Source: Leptotrichia sp. oral taxon 212 (GTDB lineage Bacteria > Fusobacteriota > Fusobacteriia > Fusobacteriales > Leptotrichiaceae). Taken from it: DNA of 64,000 nt. The notes under the pieces are model-generated. The model ran no database searches. It was not told the DNA's origin and saw only the letters and a list, made by a program, of their open reading frames with translations. Made by a program: the position numbers and the translations under genes. Position 1 is the stretch's first letter. Every line of letters begins with the position of its first letter. Shown here piece by piece: positions 2,411-39,955 of this stretch. The stretch lies in contig NZ_CP012410.1 of assembly GCF_001274535.1 (NCBI RefSeq), forward strand, positions 1,151,126 to 1,215,125, given 5' to 3'.

Positions 2411-2447
2411 GTTATAATATTTTAGGGAATTATATAATTCATAAATT

Positions 2448-3308
2448 TTACATTAGATTTTTGTCATATGCCATTTTTTCCAGTTCCTTTATTCTGTCAG
2501 ATGTAGAAGGGTGTGTTCTAAATAAATCAGCAAGTCCCTGAAGTCCTGAAAGAGGATTGATAATAAACATATGTGAATATGCAGGATTTTGCTTTGTCAT
2601 AGGAATATTATGACTATATGATTCAAGTTTATTTAAAGCATCCCTTAAATATAAAGGATTTCCTGAAAATTCTGCTCCTGCCCTGTCAGCCATAAATTCC
2701 CTACGACGGGAAATTGACATTTGAATAATTGCTGCAGCAAGAGGTGCAAGAAAAGAGAATAACATAAGAGTTCCAGTATTATTTCTTCGTCTTCTCGAAT
2801 CTCCTGAATTTCCAAAATAAGGAAGAAATCTAGCAATATTGGAAATCGCTCCTGCAAAAGTTGCAGCTATTGTACTTATAAGAATATCCCTATGCTTAAC
2901 ATGTCCAAGTTCATGTCCTAAAACTCCGGCAAGTTCATTATCATTCATAATTTCAAGCAGACCTTCAGTACATGCAACTGCAGCATGTTGAGGATTTCTA
3001 CCTGTAGCAAATGCGTTAGGCTGTCTTTCCGGAATAATATAAACTTTTGGCATAGGTAACTTAGCATTAGCAGCTAAATTTTTAACCATTCTGTATAATC
3101 TTGGATTATTAAGTTCTGTAACTTCCTTACCATTATATGCACTTAAAACCATTTTATCACTGAACCAGTAGCTGAAGAAGCTCATTCCGCCAGCTATCAG
3201 AAGTCCTATTAAAGCACCTGAACTATTTCCTAGCAGTCCTCCAATGGTTGTAAACAGCATAATTAATGCAAACATAAGCATTCCTGTTTTTAATGAGTTA
3301 GCAAACAT
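2448..3308 (-). CDS. htpX: HtpX-type membrane zinc metalloprotease (M48)
   Basis: HtpX is a membrane-bound zinc protease that degrades misfolded membrane proteins on the cytoplasmic side. The 286-residue product has two N-terminal hydrophobic segments (about 9-30 and 30-52), the catalytic HELGH at residues 132-136, two further hydrophobic stretches, and the downstream RREFMADRAGAEF segment that supplies the third zinc ligand. The start was set at the ATG at 3308, because it begins with the usual MFANSLKT-like sequence and has an AAGGAG site just upstream. The longer open frame to 3389 adds 27 atypical residues. The gene is divergent from the first giant autotransporter, so an envelope quality-control role beside an abundant secreted protein is plausible (inference). 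Confidence 0.92.
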   Translation of the reverse strand: MFANSLKTGMLMFALIMLFTTIGGLLGNSSGALIGLLIAGGMSFFSYWFSDKMVLSAYNGKEVTELNNPRLYRMVKNLAANAKLPMPKVYIIPERQPNAFATGRNPQHAAVACTEGLLEIMNDNELAGVLGHELGHVKHRDILISTIAATFAGAISNIARFLPYFGNSGDSRRRRNNTGTLMLFSFLAPLAAAIIQMSISRRREFMADRAGAEFSGNPLYLRDALNKLESYSHNIPMTKQNPAYSHMFIINPLSGLQGLADLFRTHPSTSDRIKELEKMAYDKNLM

Positions 3309-3529
3309 TTTTTTCTCCTTTTTATTATTTTCTTCATTATAATATATAAAAGGTATTTTTTCAATTAAAAGTTTAATGGAAAAGTTCAATTAAAAAATAC
3401 AAATAAAATATGTAAATAATATATAGATATTCTTTCTATATATAACTTCTACATTTTCTTCTAAGTATTATTTTTGAAAGGTTTCTTGCTTTATAAAAAA
3501 TAAAAAATGGATTTTTTTAAAAAAAAGAG

Positions 3530-3558
3530 TAGACTATTAAAACAATATTTTGTATAAT
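3530..3558 (+). promoter_or_regulatory. Promoter of autotransporter 1, conserved in autotransporter 2
   Basis: A consensus -10 TATAAT at 3553-3558 lies 17 bp from a weak -35 TAGACT at 3530-3535. Just upstream is a T7-A7-type tract that could act as an UP element. The same block (T/A tract, TAGAnT, ATTAAAACAA, TATAAT, GAAAACTAAG) precedes the second autotransporter, so the two genes are probably co-regulated from duplicated promoters. Confidence 0.7.
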
Positions 3559-3631
3559 ATAACGGAAAACTAAGTATGATAAAAGCTTAAATTAAAGAAA
3601 AAATAAATTAAAGCAGAAGGAGTTGAGAACT

Positions 3632-6600
3632 TTGGATAATAATTTGAGAAATATTGAGAAAACTCTTAGAAATTTTGTAAAAAGATGTAAAGGAGTAGCA
3701 TATACAAAAGAAATGTTATTTACATTTTTATTAACAGGTTCCTTTGCACAGGCAGCACAGATAAAGAGTAATGATGATTCTATTCAAGGTGCAAAAAAAC
3801 AGATTGAGAATTCAATCGGAGATATGAAAAAACTTTTCAAGGAAGCGAAACATGAAAATAATAAACTGATGAAAAATTCAAACCTTGAACTGATACAACT
3901 AATGGAACAGGGAGACCATGTAGTGAAATCCCCATGGAGTTCATGGCAGTTCGGTATGAACTATTTTTACAGTGACTGGAGAGGAACTTACAAAGGCAGA
4001 GGTGATAAAAAAGAGAAATATCCTTATGAAGGTATATTCCAGAGAAGCGAAGATGCATTTGAAAGATATACTTCTCCTTTAAGTGAAAAATATAAAGGAT
4101 TGCCTACTTCAACCAATCCTTATTCTGCATCTTCAACTGCAAGAGAAGGATTAAATAAGGGATATGGAATTTCAAGTACATCGCCTAAACAGGAACCATT
4201 ATCTACATTGAATGTGGATGCTTCAATAAGGCCAAAAGATGTGTTTAGGGATGCAGTAGAAGCTCCGGTAGTATCAGTTCCTGTACCTCAATTAAGTGTG
4301 ATTAATGTACCCAACTTACTGCCACCTTCATTGAACATACCGACTCCGGCAACACCAACTATAAGTCTGAATTTACCAACACCAAACACAAATCCATTTA
4401 CGGATTTCTGTTTTACATGTGGAACTCAAAATGGAGTACACCAAGTTGATAATGCTAAGGCTTTTAACGATGCGCAGCATAACAGTTCTGATGGAAATGA
4501 TCCTGATAAAAAGCCTAACTGGACGGATGGAGGAAATAATAAATTCTGGACAGGATATAATCCGGTTACAGGTTTATTAACTCCAAATTCTGGAACAAAT
4601 GGAAATATAAGAAATTTTTCCTATTCAAGTGGAAGTAGAACTAACTGGGCTCCAAGAACTGCAGCAGCATTATACTTTAATAAGTCTTACGATGAAAGAG
4701 CAAGAGCTAATACAGCTCTAGGATTATCAGCTGCAAATATGAAAAAGCCTAAACCTGATCCGGTAGGATTTGAAGCAAAAAATATTGAAGTATATGTTGC
4801 TGGGAATGTATCAGATAATGCCGGAAATAATGCAGGGAAAACCAATGGTAATCATGATGGTGCAATAGGAATACATACAGTTTGGGATGGAACACTTTCA
4901 AATATTAAAGGGCATCTATATGGAAGAGCAAATTTCCTTTCAATAGAGACTTGGCATTCAGGTAGATTACAATTTAATAATGTATCGATAAATATTGAAA
5001 GAGATGATAGCAAAGGGATAAAAGCAAATGAGAACACTTTATTCTATATTTACCCAGCTACTTATGATACGATAGCTTCTCATAACTACTGGGCAGGAGC
5101 TCCAAAGCAACGTGGAGGATTTATCGGAAAAGTTGATGCAAAAATTGCATCAAATAAAAATATAGTGTACTCTGTACTTGGTGCTCAAGGTTCATTTGAG
5201 ATAACTAGTACAGGTAAATATGAGTTAGAAGGAGCAGATAACATAGTTTATTCTGGTTTAGGTTACTCTCCTAACTTTAATAATTTAAAGGGTAGTGGAA
5301 TAGTTGAAGATTTATATAATACAGGCTTAACTCCTTCAATAAAGCTTGATAAAGCTCCAGAATCTTATGGTGACGGAAACGTTGTGATGCTATTCAATAA
5401 TAGAATCAGCTTAGCTGGTAAAGCCTTCTATGATTCTCCTACTAACAGTTCAAATGCATATATATCAAATGATGGAAATGGACCTGTTAGAAAAGCTAAT
5501 TGGGAAAAATCTGGAGTTGGAATATATCAAGGTGAAATAAGAGCAAAAGCTATTATTGGTAATCAATTAAATATGGCAAATTCCGGAACTCAAACAGCGG
5601 CCGGAAATACAACTACTATAAGAAATGGTGGTATTGAAACAGAAAGAACAGGTGATGCCAACTATGTTGAAAATAATATAGGAATATATGCAAGATCTGG
5701 GCAAAGAGGAAAAGAAACAATAAATGGTCAAGTAGCTCAAATTAAACCTTCAGAAGATTTAGGTGCTAAAGATGCTGCAAGAAATACTAACTTTGATTTA
5801 GATGAAGTTCATTCCCTACAAGTTAATGATATTGATATCAGTTTTGGTAAATATGCTAAAAATGGTATTATGATGGTTTCAGAAAACGGAACTGTTTTAG
5901 ATGTGGCTATGAGTACTAACAAACATCAAGGTAGTGATGCAACAACTGTACCTATAATGACAGGAGATATTAAAGATTATGGAACAGTTAATCTTAATGG
6001 AAAAATTTCATATAATGATGCTGGCAATGAGGCTGCAACTGGAACAATAATAGCTTATTCAGATGGAAAATGGCAAAATGCCGTTCATGGAATGACATCA
6101 GCTGAAGCTGGAAGATTTGAAGGAAAGCCAAGTGAAATCAATATAGGACGTAATGTAGTCCTTACCGGAAGATATAAAAAGTTTGCTGATGGTACAGAGT
6201 CCACTCCTGTAGCTTATGTGGCTAAAAACGGAGGAGAAATCACTGCTCATGAAAAAACTTCAGCAAAAGGTTTTGGAGGATTACTGGCTTATGCTGAAGC
6301 AGGAGGAAAAGTTACATTAAAGAAAGAAGCTGAATCAGTAAGCGAATGGGCTAAGAAGGATGAAGAAACAAAGCCTTATCTGTATGAAAATATTGGAGGA
6401 TATGCTAAAGGTGCAGGTTCAACTGTTACATTTGAAGAAAATCTGAAAATTAACGGTATGGCAGGTTTTGCTGATGGAACAGGAGCAGTTGTAAACTTGA
6501 ATAAAAATGCAAATAAAGTACAGACAGGTAAAGGTGGAGCACTGGTAGCCCTTAATGGAGGAGTAGTTAATTTTGGTGGTGGAGATATCTACCATGAAAC

Positions 6601-35709: not shown

Positions 35710-37017
35710 ATGAGAGAAAAAAAGAATATAAAATTAGATATAGTAAATTTACTGGATGAAATCCAGAATGGAAAATATAGTAATATTCAGATGAATTATT
35801 ATTTCAGTCAAAATGAATATTCAAAAAAGGAAAGGGAATTCATAACAAATATAATAAATGTTACACTTAAGAATCTCATATTTGTAGATTATATACTTGG
35901 CCAGACTGTAAGAAATATTCAGAAGCGTAAAATAAAACAGCTTCTGAGAATATCAGTCGCCCAGATATTGTTTATGGATTCTGATAATGCAGGGGTAGTC
36001 TATGAAGCGGGAGAAATTTCCAAAATAATAAATAAGCATCAGACAGGATTTGTAAATGCGACTTTGCAGGCAATTATTAAAAATAAGGAGGAAATCATAA
36101 ATGCCATACCTGAAGATAAAAAGGAGGGCATAGTAAATTCATATCCTCAATGGTTTGTAAATAAGCTTAAAACTGATTATCCTGATGATTATCTGGCTAT
36201 GATGAAAGCATATAAGGAACGTAGTTATCTTTCTGTCAGATATAACAGTAAAAAATTAAGTAAAGAAGATTTTGAAAAAATATTATCGGAAATAAAAAGT
36301 GAAGTTCTATTTTCTGCTGACGAAGTACATTACCTTTCAAATGGAAATATACTGACAACAGAAGAATATAAACGAGGGGATATAATAATACAGGATGCTT
36401 CCTCGTATATTGCAGTAAAAAATCTGGATGTATCAGAAAAGGATACGGTACTTGACGCCTGTGCGGCTCCAGGAGGAAAATCACTGGTAATATTGCAGAC
36501 ATTCAGTCCAAAATTACTTCTAGCAACAGATATACATGAGCATAAAATAGAAGTAATGAAAAAAATGAAGGAAAGATATGGATATGATAATTTTGAAATA
36601 AAACTGAATGATGCAGCAAATATTGAAAACCTGAATATGAAGTTTGACAGAATTTTACTTGATGTTCCATGTAGTGGACTTGGAGTTTTACGTAAAAAGC
36701 CTGAAAAAATATATAATCTGACATCTGATGATATTAAAAATCTAAAAAAATTACAGAAAAAAATATTTGACAGTGCTTATTCATGTTTAAATGATGACGG
36801 AATAATTTTATACAGCACATGCACTTTTACTGAAAATGAGAATACAAATAATCTAAAGTATTTTTTAGAAAAATATGATGATCTGAAAGTGGTAGAAATA
36901 GAAGTACCAGAAAATGTAATTATCAGCAAAGATGAATTTGGTGGAACATATATAAGCTATAAAAATCAATATTTAGATGGTTTTTATATAGCTAAACTGA
37001 AAAAAGCAAAGAAATAA
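35710..37017 (+). CDS. rsmB: 16S rRNA (cytosine-967-C5)-methyltransferase RsmB
   Basis: RsmB methylates C967 of 16S rRNA with S-adenosylmethionine. The 435-residue protein has an N-terminal NusB-like RNA-binding domain (about 5-130) and a C-terminal methyltransferase domain with DACAAPGGKS (motif I, about 255), the catalytic-cysteine segments DVPCSGLGVLRKKPE and LYSTCTFTENEN. Length is normal. It is 25 bp after the GH32 gene and 21 bp before the CCA-transferase gene, so it heads or joins an RNA-modification run. Confidence 0.93.
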   Translation: MREKKNIKLDIVNLLDEIQNGKYSNIQMNYYFSQNEYSKKEREFITNIINVTLKNLIFVDYILGQTVRNIQKRKIKQLLRISVAQILFMDSDNAGVVYEAGEISKIINKHQTGFVNATLQAIIKNKEEIINAIPEDKKEGIVNSYPQWFVNKLKTDYPDDYLAMMKAYKERSYLSVRYNSKKLSKEDFEKILSEIKSEVLFSADEVHYLSNGNILTTEEYKRGDIIIQDASSYIAVKNLDVSEKDTVLDACAAPGGKSLVILQTFSPKLLLATDIHEHKIEVMKKMKERYGYDNFEIKLNDAANIENLNMKFDRILLDVPCSGLGVLRKKPEKIYNLTSDDIKNLKKLQKKIFDSAYSCLNDDGIILYSTCTFTENENTNNLKYFLEKYDDLKVVEIEVPENVIISKDEFGGTYISYKNQYLDGFYIAKLKKAKK

Positions 37018-37038: not shown

Positions 37039-38814
37039 ATGCAATTCAATCTGAACAGCGATGTCAGCTTTATACTGGAACAACTGAATAAAAATGGAAG
37101 TGGATTTCTTGTCGGTGGAGCTGTCAGAGATTTAATAATGGGACGTGTCCCAGGAGATTATGACTTTGCAACAGATATCGAATATGCCAGACTAAAGGAG
37201 ATATTTGCAGATTATAGTCCAAAAGAAGTAGGAGCACATTTTGGAATACTCATAATAAAAGTAAATGGAAAAAGTTATGAGATTGCCAAGTTTAGAAAAG
37301 AAAAGGGAATATATAACAGCAGATATCCAAAAGAAATTAAATTTATAAATAGTATAGATGAAGATCTGGCAAGACGTGATTTTACAATAAATGCACTCGC
37401 ATATAATGAGAAAACCGGAGTGATAGACTTATACAGGGGAAAAAAGGATATAAAATATAGAACAATAAGATTTGTAGGAAACCCAAAACTCCGTATTGAA
37501 GAAGATGCATTAAGAATAATGCGCGCATTCAGATTTATTTCAAAACTTGGTTTCAGCCTGGATAAAAAAACTGCAGAAGCCATTTATGAGAAGAGAAGAT
37601 TTTTGAGTAAAATTTCGAAGGAAAGAATTTTTGATGAACTTAGTAAAATTCTTTTAGGCTCTTATGTGAAAAAAGCGCTATATGAAATGAAAAATCTTGG
37701 AATATTTGAATTTATAATACCTGAATTTAAGTATACATATAAATTTAAGCTCGGTGATTTTAAGAATAAAAATAATCTTTTTAATCATATTGTAAACACA
37801 GTAGATTTTTGTAAAAGAGATTTAATTACCAGACTGACTGCATTATTTCATGATCTTGGGAAAATAAATACACGGATTATAGATGCGAAAGGAAATTCCT
37901 TCTATTATGGACATGAAAAGGAGAGTGCGCTCATTGCCGAAGAAAAGCTTCGTCAGCTGAAAGCCTCAAAGGATATAATTTTTTCAGTAAAAAATATCAT
38001 ACTTAATCATATGACAGTAGAACAGGATTTATCAGTGAAGGAATTAAAAAAACTTATTATGGGGCTCGGTAAGGAAAATCTATCCAGACTTTTTGATCTG
38101 ATGTTAGCAAATATGAATTCAAAAACTGATTTAGACAAGGAAAAAGAAAAGATTTTAATTTACAGGTTAAAAGACAGGATAGAAGAAATAGAAAAAATGG
38201 GAAAAATTCCTGATATAAGAGATATTGCAATATCAGGAGTAGATTTGATAAATTCAGGATTTGAAGCAAAGGAAATAGGTAAAATAAAGAATGAAGTATA
38301 TAACCTGGTTTTGGGTGAAGAACTTGAAAATGAAAAGGAAACTGTAATCAGCTATTTATCTGAAAAATATAATTTAGGTACATTTAAGCGGGAAAAATCA
38401 TGTGGAGCAGTTGTCTATAATCCAAAAAAACATTCATTTTTAATTATAAAGATGCTGAATGGAAACTGGGGCTTTCCTAAAGGACATACTGAAGATCAGG
38501 AAACAGATATTCAGACTGCCATAAGGGAAGTGATGGAAGAAACAGGAATAAATATAGAAATATTAGACGGATTTAAAAAATCCATCAAATATATCCCATT
38601 TCCTGAAGTCTTAAAGGAAGTTATATTTTTCATCGGAATAACGGAGGAAGAAAAGGTTACAATTGATAAGGATGAAATAGAAGATTATATGTGGTGCAGT
38701 TATGAAGAAGCCTTAAAAATGATAACTTATAAACCTCAGAGAGATGTTATGGAAAGTTCATTGCAATTTATAAAAAACTATTATGGAGATGATAAAAATG
38801 ATATACCTGGATAA
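37039..38814 (+). CDS. CCA tRNA nucleotidyltransferase fused to a C-terminal Nudix hydrolase domain
   Basis: Residues 1-440 are a class II tRNA nucleotidyltransferase: GGAVRDLIMGRVPGDYDFAT with the metal-binding DxD, the ARRDFTINALAY segment, the RIEEDALRIMRAFRF region and an HD motif (FHDLGK, His 271). Residues 455-585 form a Nudix domain with a complete box (GX5EX7REUXEEXGU, residues 482-504: GHTEDQ, E, REVMEETGI) of the Ap4A-hydrolase-like sort. The parts join without a stop, giving 591 residues against about 450 for the enzyme alone. The first part adds or repairs the 3' CCA of tRNA; the second may remove a nucleotide by-product (inference). Its end overlaps the next gene by 17 bases. Confidence 0.9.
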   Translation: MQFNLNSDVSFILEQLNKNGSGFLVGGAVRDLIMGRVPGDYDFATDIEYARLKEIFADYSPKEVGAHFGILIIKVNGKSYEIAKFRKEKGIYNSRYPKEIKFINSIDEDLARRDFTINALAYNEKTGVIDLYRGKKDIKYRTIRFVGNPKLRIEEDALRIMRAFRFISKLGFSLDKKTAEAIYEKRRFLSKISKERIFDELSKILLGSYVKKALYEMKNLGIFEFIIPEFKYTYKFKLGDFKNKNNLFNHIVNTVDFCKRDLITRLTALFHDLGKINTRIIDAKGNSFYYGHEKESALIAEEKLRQLKASKDIIFSVKNIILNHMTVEQDLSVKELKKLIMGLGKENLSRLFDLMLANMNSKTDLDKEKEKILIYRLKDRIEEIEKMGKIPDIRDIAISGVDLINSGFEAKEIGKIKNEVYNLVLGEELENEKETVISYLSEKYNLGTFKREKSCGAVVYNPKKHSFLIIKMLNGNWGFPKGHTEDQETDIQTAIREVMEETGINIEILDGFKKSIKYIPFPEVLKEVIFFIGITEEEKVTIDKDEIEDYMWCSYEEALKMITYKPQRDVMESSLQFIKNYYGDDKNDIPG

Positions 38815-39955
38815 AGCTGCTACTTCTTATCATAAGCCTGAAGAAGTGGCAAAGGCAGTATACGAGGCTGTAAAAGCTACTGGAAATAGTGGAAGAGGAG
38901 CAAATTCTGTTTCACTGAACACTACTAAGATGCTCTATGATACAAGAGAAAAACTTTGCAAGCTTTTTAACGGAAAGGATTCATCACGAATAACTTTTGC
39001 TCATAACGCAACAGAAGCTCTAAATATTGTCATTAGGGGACTGTTTAAGGAAGGAGATCATGTTATTACTACAGAAGCTGAACATAATTCAGTTCTGAGA
39101 CCTCTTTATCGTAGCAGAAGGGAAGAAAATACAGAACTCACCTTTATAAAATGTGATAAAAAAGGGAGGCTTGAGATTTCAGAAATTGAAAAAAATATAC
39201 AGAAAAATACTAAAGCCATAATATGTACTCATGCATCGAATCTCACTGGAAATATAATGGATATAGAAAAAATAGGAAAAATATGCAGGGAAAATAATCT
39301 GATTTTTATAGTTGATGCATCTCAAAGTGCAGGAAGCATACCTATAGATATTGAAAGACAGAATATTGATGTACTGTGTTTTACTGGACATAAAAGTCTG
39401 TATGGTGCTCAGGGGACTGGAGGATTATATGTCAGAGAAGGTATCTTAATAGATCCTCTAAAAGTTGGTGGAAGCGGAATAGATACATATAATATTGAAC
39501 ATCCTGCTGAAATGCCTGAAAGACTTGAGGCCGGAACTCTTAACAGTCATGGAATTGCAGGACTTAGAGCTGGAATAGATTTTATAAACAGAACAGGGCT
39601 TGAAAAAATTCACAGCAGGGAAAAAGAACTTATGTGGAGATTTTATAATGGTATAAAGGATATAAAAAATATAAAAATTTATGGAGAGTTTTTTGATGCT
39701 GATGGCAGGGAAATAGATAGAATTGCCATTGTTTCAATCAATTTAGGCGATATTGACTCTGCGGAAATATGTGATATACTTAATATAGAATATGATATTG
39801 TAACAAGGGCAGGAGGGCACTGTGCTCCTTTGATGCATAAAGCTCTGGAAACTGATATACAGGGGGCTGTAAGATTCAGTTTTTCCTATTTCAATACAGA
39901 AGAAGAAATAGATGTGGCGATTAATGCAATTAAAGAAATAGCAGAATCCTTTTAA
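38798..39955 (+). CDS. Cysteine desulfurase family protein (class V aminotransferase fold)
   Basis: A PLP enzyme of 385 residues with the lysine in CFTGHKSLYGAQG (Lys 199) and the conserved His/Gln contacts (AEHNSVLRP, DASQSAGS). A cysteine in AGGHCAP (Cys 342) is in the place of the active-site cysteine of desulfurases. Such enzymes take sulfur (or selenium) from cysteine (or selenocysteine). The ATG at 38798 (MIYLDKAATS) is preferred over the frame start 15 bases upstream because GGAG then has normal spacing. It overlaps the CCA-Nudix gene and is followed by YedE and DUF3343, a grouping linked to selenium metabolism. Confidence 0.88.
   Translation: MIYLDKAATSYHKPEEVAKAVYEAVKATGNSGRGANSVSLNTTKMLYDTREKLCKLFNGKDSSRITFAHNATEALNIVIRGLFKEGDHVITTEAEHNSVLRPLYRSRREENTELTFIKCDKKGRLEISEIEKNIQKNTKAIICTHASNLTGNIMDIEKIGKICRENNLIFIVDASQSAGSIPIDIERQNIDVLCFTGHKSLYGAQGTGGLYVREGILIDPLKVGGSGIDTYNIEHPAEMPERLEAGTLNSHGIAGLRAGIDFINRTGLEKIHSREKELMWRFYNGIKDIKNIKIYGEFFDADGREIDRIAIVSINLGDIDSAEICDILNIEYDIVTRAGGHCAPLMHKALETDIQGAVRFSFSYFNTEEEIDVAINAIKEIAESF

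What the first reader, a model, noticed from the sequence alone, without database searches (positions are those of the whole stretch)
37039..38814. CCA-adding enzyme fused to a Nudix hydrolase
The 591-residue protein carries a complete Nudix box after a full CCA-transferase. The fusion suggests that the Nudix part removes a nucleotide by-product or controls CCA addition, for example by acting on Ap4A or on mis-incorporated NTPs.
Basis: partly seen in the sequence, partly recalled or inferred. Interest (0 to 1): 0.52.

Follow-up and report, generated by a model that had tools for sequence, protein, structure and literature searches.

The report
tRNA-end repair enzyme with Nudix domain
In one family of fusobacteria the enzyme that restores the CCA tail of tRNA carries a built-in Nudix hydrolase of the Ap4A-hydrolase type; the extra domain stays intact even where the enzyme's older HD repair domain has decayed, which hints at a real but untested link between tRNA repair and nucleotide clean-up.

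Summary
Window 37039-38814 (+) is one open frame of 591 aa: CCA-adding enzyme (NTase head, neck, HD domain, C-terminal domain), a linker of about six residues, then a complete Nudix domain. It is no assembly artefact: all 28 genomes of this bacterial family (Leptotrichiaceae, by a named Leptotrichia locus) that are at least 90% complete carry the full fusion; 0 of 65 other Fusobacteriota do, and none appeared in samples of Bacillota genomes. The Nudix domain belongs by profile and by predicted fold with asymmetrical Ap4A hydrolases, not with MutT or RppH. It is under strong purifying selection. In nine members, mostly with small genomes, the HD domain has lost its catalytic residues, while the Nudix domain keeps every tested catalytic residue and is as conserved as the polymerase head. 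All 42 tRNA genes of the host genome encode CCA, so the enzyme repairs tails rather than making them. Most likely the Nudix domain hydrolyses Ap4A-like dinucleotides beside a tRNA-repair enzyme; action on RNA 5' ends is the main rival. A prediction that it replaces the usual Ap4A hydrolase YqeK failed: YqeK is present too. New domain architecture of known parts; substrate untested.

The parts
37039..38814 (+). whole gene: CCA tRNA nucleotidyltransferase-HD-Nudix fusion, 591 aa
37039..37731 (+). class II nucleotidyltransferase head and neck (residues 1-231): VGGAVRD, D40/D42, E81, RRDFT, R159/R162
   Evidence: the residues tested are invariant in 28 of 28 fusions
37732..38187 (+). HD region (residues 232-383) with H250, H271-D272, H292, H324 intact here
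38188..38379 (+). C-terminal domain of the CCA enzyme and short linker (residues 384-447); last helix 433-443, Nudix strand from 450
38383..38778 (+). Nudix domain, Ap4A-hydrolase type (residues 449-580); Nudix box at residues 482-504
35710..37017 (+). upstream gene, RsmB-like 16S rRNA methyltransferase by its sequence (name recalled), 21 bases before the fusion gene
38783..39955 (+). downstream gene, cysteine-desulfurase-like (name recalled); its start overlaps the end of the fusion gene by up to 32 bases

Best explanation
The gene encodes the host's only CCA tRNA nucleotidyltransferase, used for repair of tRNA 3' ends, with two further hydrolase domains. Shown: the domains, their intact catalytic residues, family-wide conservation, strong purifying selection on the Nudix part, its place by profile and fold among asymmetrical Ap4A hydrolases, and that all host tRNA genes already encode CCA. 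Inferred: the HD domain clears phosphate or cyclic phosphate from damaged tRNA 3' ends, the head rebuilds CCA, and the Nudix domain cuts Ap4A-like dinucleoside polyphosphates (to ATP and AMP). A possible reason to join them: aminoacyl-tRNA synthetases make Ap4A when an aminoacyl-adenylate meets ATP instead of an intact tRNA CCA end (recalled chemistry), so damaged CCA ends and Ap4A would rise together.
For: Single PolyA_pol gene in the genome. tRNA genes encoding CCA: 42 of 42. Nudix profile A1: the best six distinct PDB sequences are NUDT2 (three), CT771, Aquifex Ap4A hydrolase and C. elegans Ap4A hydrolase, E 1e-21 to 4e-19; Dcp2-type relatives follow at 1e-13. Nudix model (pLDDT 92.9): Foldseek best 3i7u and 4mpo; VIA-align Z 21.0, rmsd 1.4 over 126 residues to Ndx1, then 3i7u 20.8 and CT771 20.6. 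Tyr518 and Lys526, invariant in 13 of 13 rows of A1, coincide with a Tyr and a Lys of NUDT2 in the printed alignment. Nudix residues K481, G482, H483, E485, E488, E501 kept in 28 of 28. dN/dS of the Nudix part 0.025-0.118 in 9 chosen close pairs, NTase part 0.024-0.134.
Against: YqeK, the symmetrical Ap4A hydrolase, is over its cut-off in 95 of 98 Fusobacteriota genomes, all 33 family members included, so the Nudix domain is not filling a missing Ap4A activity. NUDT2 itself also trims 5'-triphosphate RNA (PMC8616924, passages read), so this subfamily does not fix the substrate. No tool here tests catalysis. The placing of the Nudix domain relative to the rest in the full model is uncertain (pTM 0.74; no PAE seen).
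Confidence: 0.5

Rival explanations
1. The Nudix domain works on RNA 5' ends: it removes pyrophosphate or NpnN caps from RNA, using the CCA enzyme as an RNA-binding platform, i.e. an RppH-like or decapping role.
For: The nearest characterised human member, NUDT2, trims 5'-triphosphate RNA to monophosphate RNA (PMC8616924, passages); NpnN caps exist on bacterial RNA and are removed by RppH and ApaH (PMC7044304, abstract and outline). The Nudix profile's next relatives after Ap4A hydrolases are Dcp2 decapping enzymes. The partner domain binds RNA. None of three other Nudix proteins of the host that I scanned reaches the RppH or YtkD cut-off (the fifth Nudix gene, L056, was not scanned), and ApaH is over its cut-off in 0 of 98 genomes.
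Against: The fused domain scores 27.7 bits against the RppH cut-off of 118. A tRNA-specific partner is an odd platform for mRNA 5' ends; mature tRNA has a 5' monophosphate (recalled).
Confidence: 0.25
2. The Nudix domain is mainly a sensor: it binds Ap4A or a similar alarmone and tunes CCA repair under stress.
For: Domains are joined by about six residues, so they could communicate. The fusion is kept in all 28 near-complete genomes of the family.
Against: All catalytic residues tested are kept in 28 of 28 fusions, which a pure binding domain would not need.
Confidence: 0.1
3. The fusion is neutral: two housekeeping activities joined by chance, with no functional link.
For: The same Nudix type is fused to unrelated partners elsewhere (HD protein L156/L158, membrane protease-like L157, glycosidase-like L154, HAD phosphatase-like L390, RdgB-like L391), so it is prone to fusion.
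Against: Joined and intact through the whole family, while the HD domain decays in nine members. In another genus of Fusobacteriota a different Nudix gene sits 4 bases before, or overlaps by 1 base, the CCA gene (L021, L022).
Confidence: 0.15

Closest known systems
Class II CCA-adding enzymes with HD domain (E. coli Cca, M. tuberculosis Rv3907c; structures 1miv and 6qy6 for the polymerase part)
   Same: Head, neck, RNA-binding and HD motifs; best PDB hits by sequence and fold are CCA enzymes; HD-bearing CCA enzymes have phosphatase activity (PMC10673834, passages)
   Different: An extra C-terminal Nudix domain of about 130 residues; in nine family members the HD residues are lost
Asymmetrical Ap4A hydrolases of the Nudix superfamily (human NUDT2, Chlamydia CT771, Aquifex 3i7u; also Thermus Ndx1)
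   Same: Nudix box, Tyr and Lys downstream, fold
   Different: Those matched are short proteins of 126-155 residues; here the domain is C-terminal in a tRNA enzyme
NMN adenylyltransferase-Nudix fusions (PRK05379, a curated NCBIfam name seen)
   Same: Precedent for a nucleotidyltransferase joined to a Nudix hydrolase
   Different: Unrelated nucleotidyltransferase and pathway (recalled)
Co-located Nudix and CCA genes (L021/L022, Fusobacteriota genus g17)
   Same: Nudix and CCA genes adjacent on the same strand
   Different: Separate proteins, reverse order, and a MutT/NudG-like Nudix

Membership tests
Class II CCA tRNA nucleotidyltransferase | GG-x-VRD head motif, DxD metal residues, RRDFT motif, EDxLRxxRAxRF-type motif; over the PolyA_pol cut-off | tested here: met
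Class II CCA tRNA nucleotidyltransferase | curated NCBIfam CCA equivalog score (PRK13299) | tested here: not met
   249.3 bits against a cut-off of 290; best-scoring model all the same, so the family is right and the equivalog call is open
Class II CCA tRNA nucleotidyltransferase | adds CCA (not only A or CC) to tRNA | not testable with these tools
   sole PolyA_pol gene in the genome argues for full CCA activity
HD-domain CCA enzyme | H...HD...H metal-binding residues | tested here: met
   present in this protein; intact in 18 of 19 group A fusions, 0 of 9 group B fusions
Asymmetrical Ap4A hydrolase (Nudix) | Nudix box GX5EX7REUXEEXGU | tested here: met
   in relatives the last G is often N
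Asymmetrical Ap4A hydrolase (Nudix) | closest by profile and fold to solved Ap4A hydrolases | tested here: met
Asymmetrical Ap4A hydrolase (Nudix) | cleaves Ap4A to ATP and AMP | not testable with these tools
   needs an assay
RppH RNA pyrophosphohydrolase | curated NCBIfam score | tested here: not met
   best 27.7 bits against 118
MutT 8-oxo-dGTP diphosphatase | curated NCBIfam score | tested here: not met
   24.3 bits against 97.9

The most novel reading that the evidence does not exclude
The protein is a three-step healing enzyme for tRNA ends: HD removes 3' phosphates, the head rebuilds CCA, and the Nudix domain removes pyrophosphate-type lesions from tRNA itself, for example a 3'-pyrophosphate such as toxSAS toxins put on CCA ends, or polyphosphate or NpnN on 5' ends of pre-tRNA. 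Precedent: the Nudix enzymes MutT and NudG cut ppGpp to pGp, thus cleave a 3'-pyrophosphate (PMC5845004, passages), and toxSAS pyrophosphorylate tRNA 3'-CCA (PMC11559606, abstract start and passages). Against: the host has a single RelA/SpoT protein, of full length, and only 5 of 33 family genomes have a shorter second one, so no native source of the lesion is evident here.
Probability: 0.12. Interest if true: 0.78.

Novelty: new variant of a known kind. Interest (0 to 1): 0.42.

Why it matters
A fixed, selected fusion is a strong hint of a functional tie. Here it would tie Ap4A or RNA-end chemistry to tRNA repair, a link for which I found no paper in the library searched (open-licence PubMed Central only, and by those terms only). 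The family offers a natural experiment: members that kept Nudix but lost HD. A single purified protein would test whether tRNA damage and Ap4A are handled together.

Tried and rejected
Nudix as stand-in for a missing Ap4A hydrolase: rejected, YqeK present in all 33 family genomes. MutT-type sanitation: not supported by subfamily scores. Assembly artefact: rejected. Eleven Bacillota regions with long CCA frames were fetched and none held a Nudix box. Viral contigs: the full-length query found nothing; of the 80 CCA loci kept none was fused. Actinobacterial CCA genes lie beside a Nudix gene (recalled); not tested. One origin of the fused Nudix domain: the short-domain tree splits 29 rows into 26 and 3; one clade is not rejected (p-AU 0.253) and not shown either. 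The CCA tree also leaves the fused rows in more than one place, with long branches. Rows dropped: the duplicates L031 and L053 and the other-type Nudix L040, L052, L054, L055; the partial L034, and only 11 unfused CCA rows, those fetched; one search used 9 chosen pairs. Structure alignments used 27 of 80 viral CCA loci and 21 of 79 Nudix loci, each with L057; alignment A3 was misaligned and not used.

Full report
What is there. Window 37039-38814 (+) encodes 591 residues in one frame. Pfam finds PolyA_pol 23-144, PolyA_pol_RNAbd 171-231, HD 262-329 and NUDIX 452-568, all over cut-off. Sequence search of solved structures gives CCA-adding enzymes for the first half (1miv, E 7.2e-44) and CT771/NUDT2-type hydrolases for the last part. 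The predicted full model has mean pLDDT 91.4; the last CCA helix ends at 443 and the Nudix sheet begins at 450. Its best folds are CCA enzymes and other tRNA nucleotidyltransferases or poly(A) polymerases, then Ap4A hydrolases. The gene starts 21 bases after an upstream gene and overlaps the next gene by up to 32 bases.

Distribution. Among 98 Fusobacteriota genomes the window's own family has 33. The full fusion is in 28; one more (G089) shows a partial fusion from a contig start, one (G067) is cut at a contig end, and three (G068, G086, G087) gave no CCA match. These five are all under 90% complete by the table, so 28 of 28 near-complete genomes have it. Outside the family, 0 of 65. That the family is Leptotrichiaceae rests on L057, a named Leptotrichia locus whose genome gives the same match coordinates as G073. 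Samples of Bacillota and other genomes showed no such fusion, with the limits told under Tried and rejected.

The domain that persists. I aligned 28 complete fusions. Head residues D40, D42, E81, R112, D114, R159 and R162 are invariant in 28. HD residues H250, H271 and D272 are together intact in 18 of 19 members of group A (genera g1, g3, g6, g8, g9; the exception has HE) and in 0 of 9 of group B (g2, g7, g10, g11, genomes of 1.2 to 1.8 Mb). The truncated G067 protein has FN in place of HD. The Nudix box is complete in all 28. Mean identity between the groups over 171 pairs: head and neck 40.4%, HD region 18.6%, C-terminal domain 30.0%, Nudix 41.5%. So the Nudix domain is held as firmly as the polymerase head where the HD domain has been given up. 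dN/dS of the Nudix part is 0.025-0.118 in nine chosen pairs of close relatives.

What kind of Nudix. Profile search puts Ap4A hydrolases first, and fold comparison does the same (Z 21.0 to Ndx1, 20.8 to Aquifex Ap4A hydrolase, 20.6 to CT771, with mycobacterial MutT1 close behind at 19.6 but with larger rmsd). Curated RppH and MutT models are far below cut-off.

What the CCA part is for. The host genome has one PolyA_pol gene. All 42 tRNA genes found with Rfam's model are followed by an encoded CCA (37, 5). Among tRNA genes that ARAGORN found in the fetched loci of four relatives, 20 of 20 (G094), 20 of 20 (G092), 15 of 15 (G090) and 28 of 28 (G039) are too. As in E. [quoted passage not shown] The same paper reports phosphatase activity for HD-bearing CCA enzymes.

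Tests that went against a simple story. If the Nudix part had replaced the common Ap4A hydrolase, YqeK should be missing; it is not (95 of 98 over cut-off, all 33 of the family). ApaH is over cut-off in 0 of 98. Free Nudix genes close to this one are rare in other Fusobacteriota: strong matches only in G042-G044 and G097. Thus the family has two likely Ap4A activities, one tied to tRNA repair. A role against toxSAS-type 3'-pyrophosphate has no evident native source in the host: one RelA/SpoT protein, in a 766-residue frame.

Independent hint. In G038 and G039 a MutT/NudG-like Nudix gene lies directly upstream of an unfused CCA gene, overlapping by 1 base or 4 bases apart. Among 118 loci with a CCA frame, 32 are fusions (four of them duplicates of others); of the 86 unfused, six show a Nudix frame in the flanks, three within 40 bases. 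How often this would happen by chance was not computed.

Conclusion. The parts are known; their lasting union in a tRNA-repair enzyme is, as far as the searches made here show, unreported. I could not consult domain-architecture databases, where it may be listed. The most likely reading is Ap4A-type hydrolysis joined to tRNA repair (0.5), then RNA 5'-end work (0.25), a neutral union (0.15) and a sensor (0.1). The tRNA-lesion reading of the section on the most novel reading overlaps the first two and is given its own probability.

Noticed in passing
L045:2304-4217 (-), genome G097: A different CCA fusion: epoxyqueuosine reductase QueH (PF02677, E 1.9e-62) joined to the front of a CCA enzyme, 638 aa; two tRNA-directed activities in one protein.
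   Followed up: partly
L037, L038, L039 (genomes G066, G081, G080): A second CCA gene (446 aa, no Nudix) almost identical in two genera of the family and grouping with genus g17 of another family: probably recent horizontal spread.
   Followed up: partly
L154, L156, L157, L158, L390, L391: The Ap4A-type Nudix domain is fused to many partners in Bacillota samples: glycosidase-like, HD protein, CPBP-like membrane protein, HAD phosphatase-like, RdgB-like (partner names other than HD recalled from sequence).
   Followed up: partly
L058-L136, e.g. L060:4599-5408: Many Clostridia Nudix proteins of this type have about 100 extra N-terminal residues; the one scanned has no Pfam match there.
   Followed up: no
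L291:1963-2388 (-) and 2429-3793 (+): On a contig of the viral collection a GH-E type Nudix gene and a CCA gene are divergent, 40 bases apart.
   Followed up: no
L052 (G000:C1:2127086-2127466, -): In the host genome a free Nudix gene lies about 2 kb from the RelA/SpoT match (2125040-2125372, -) on the same strand.
   Followed up: no
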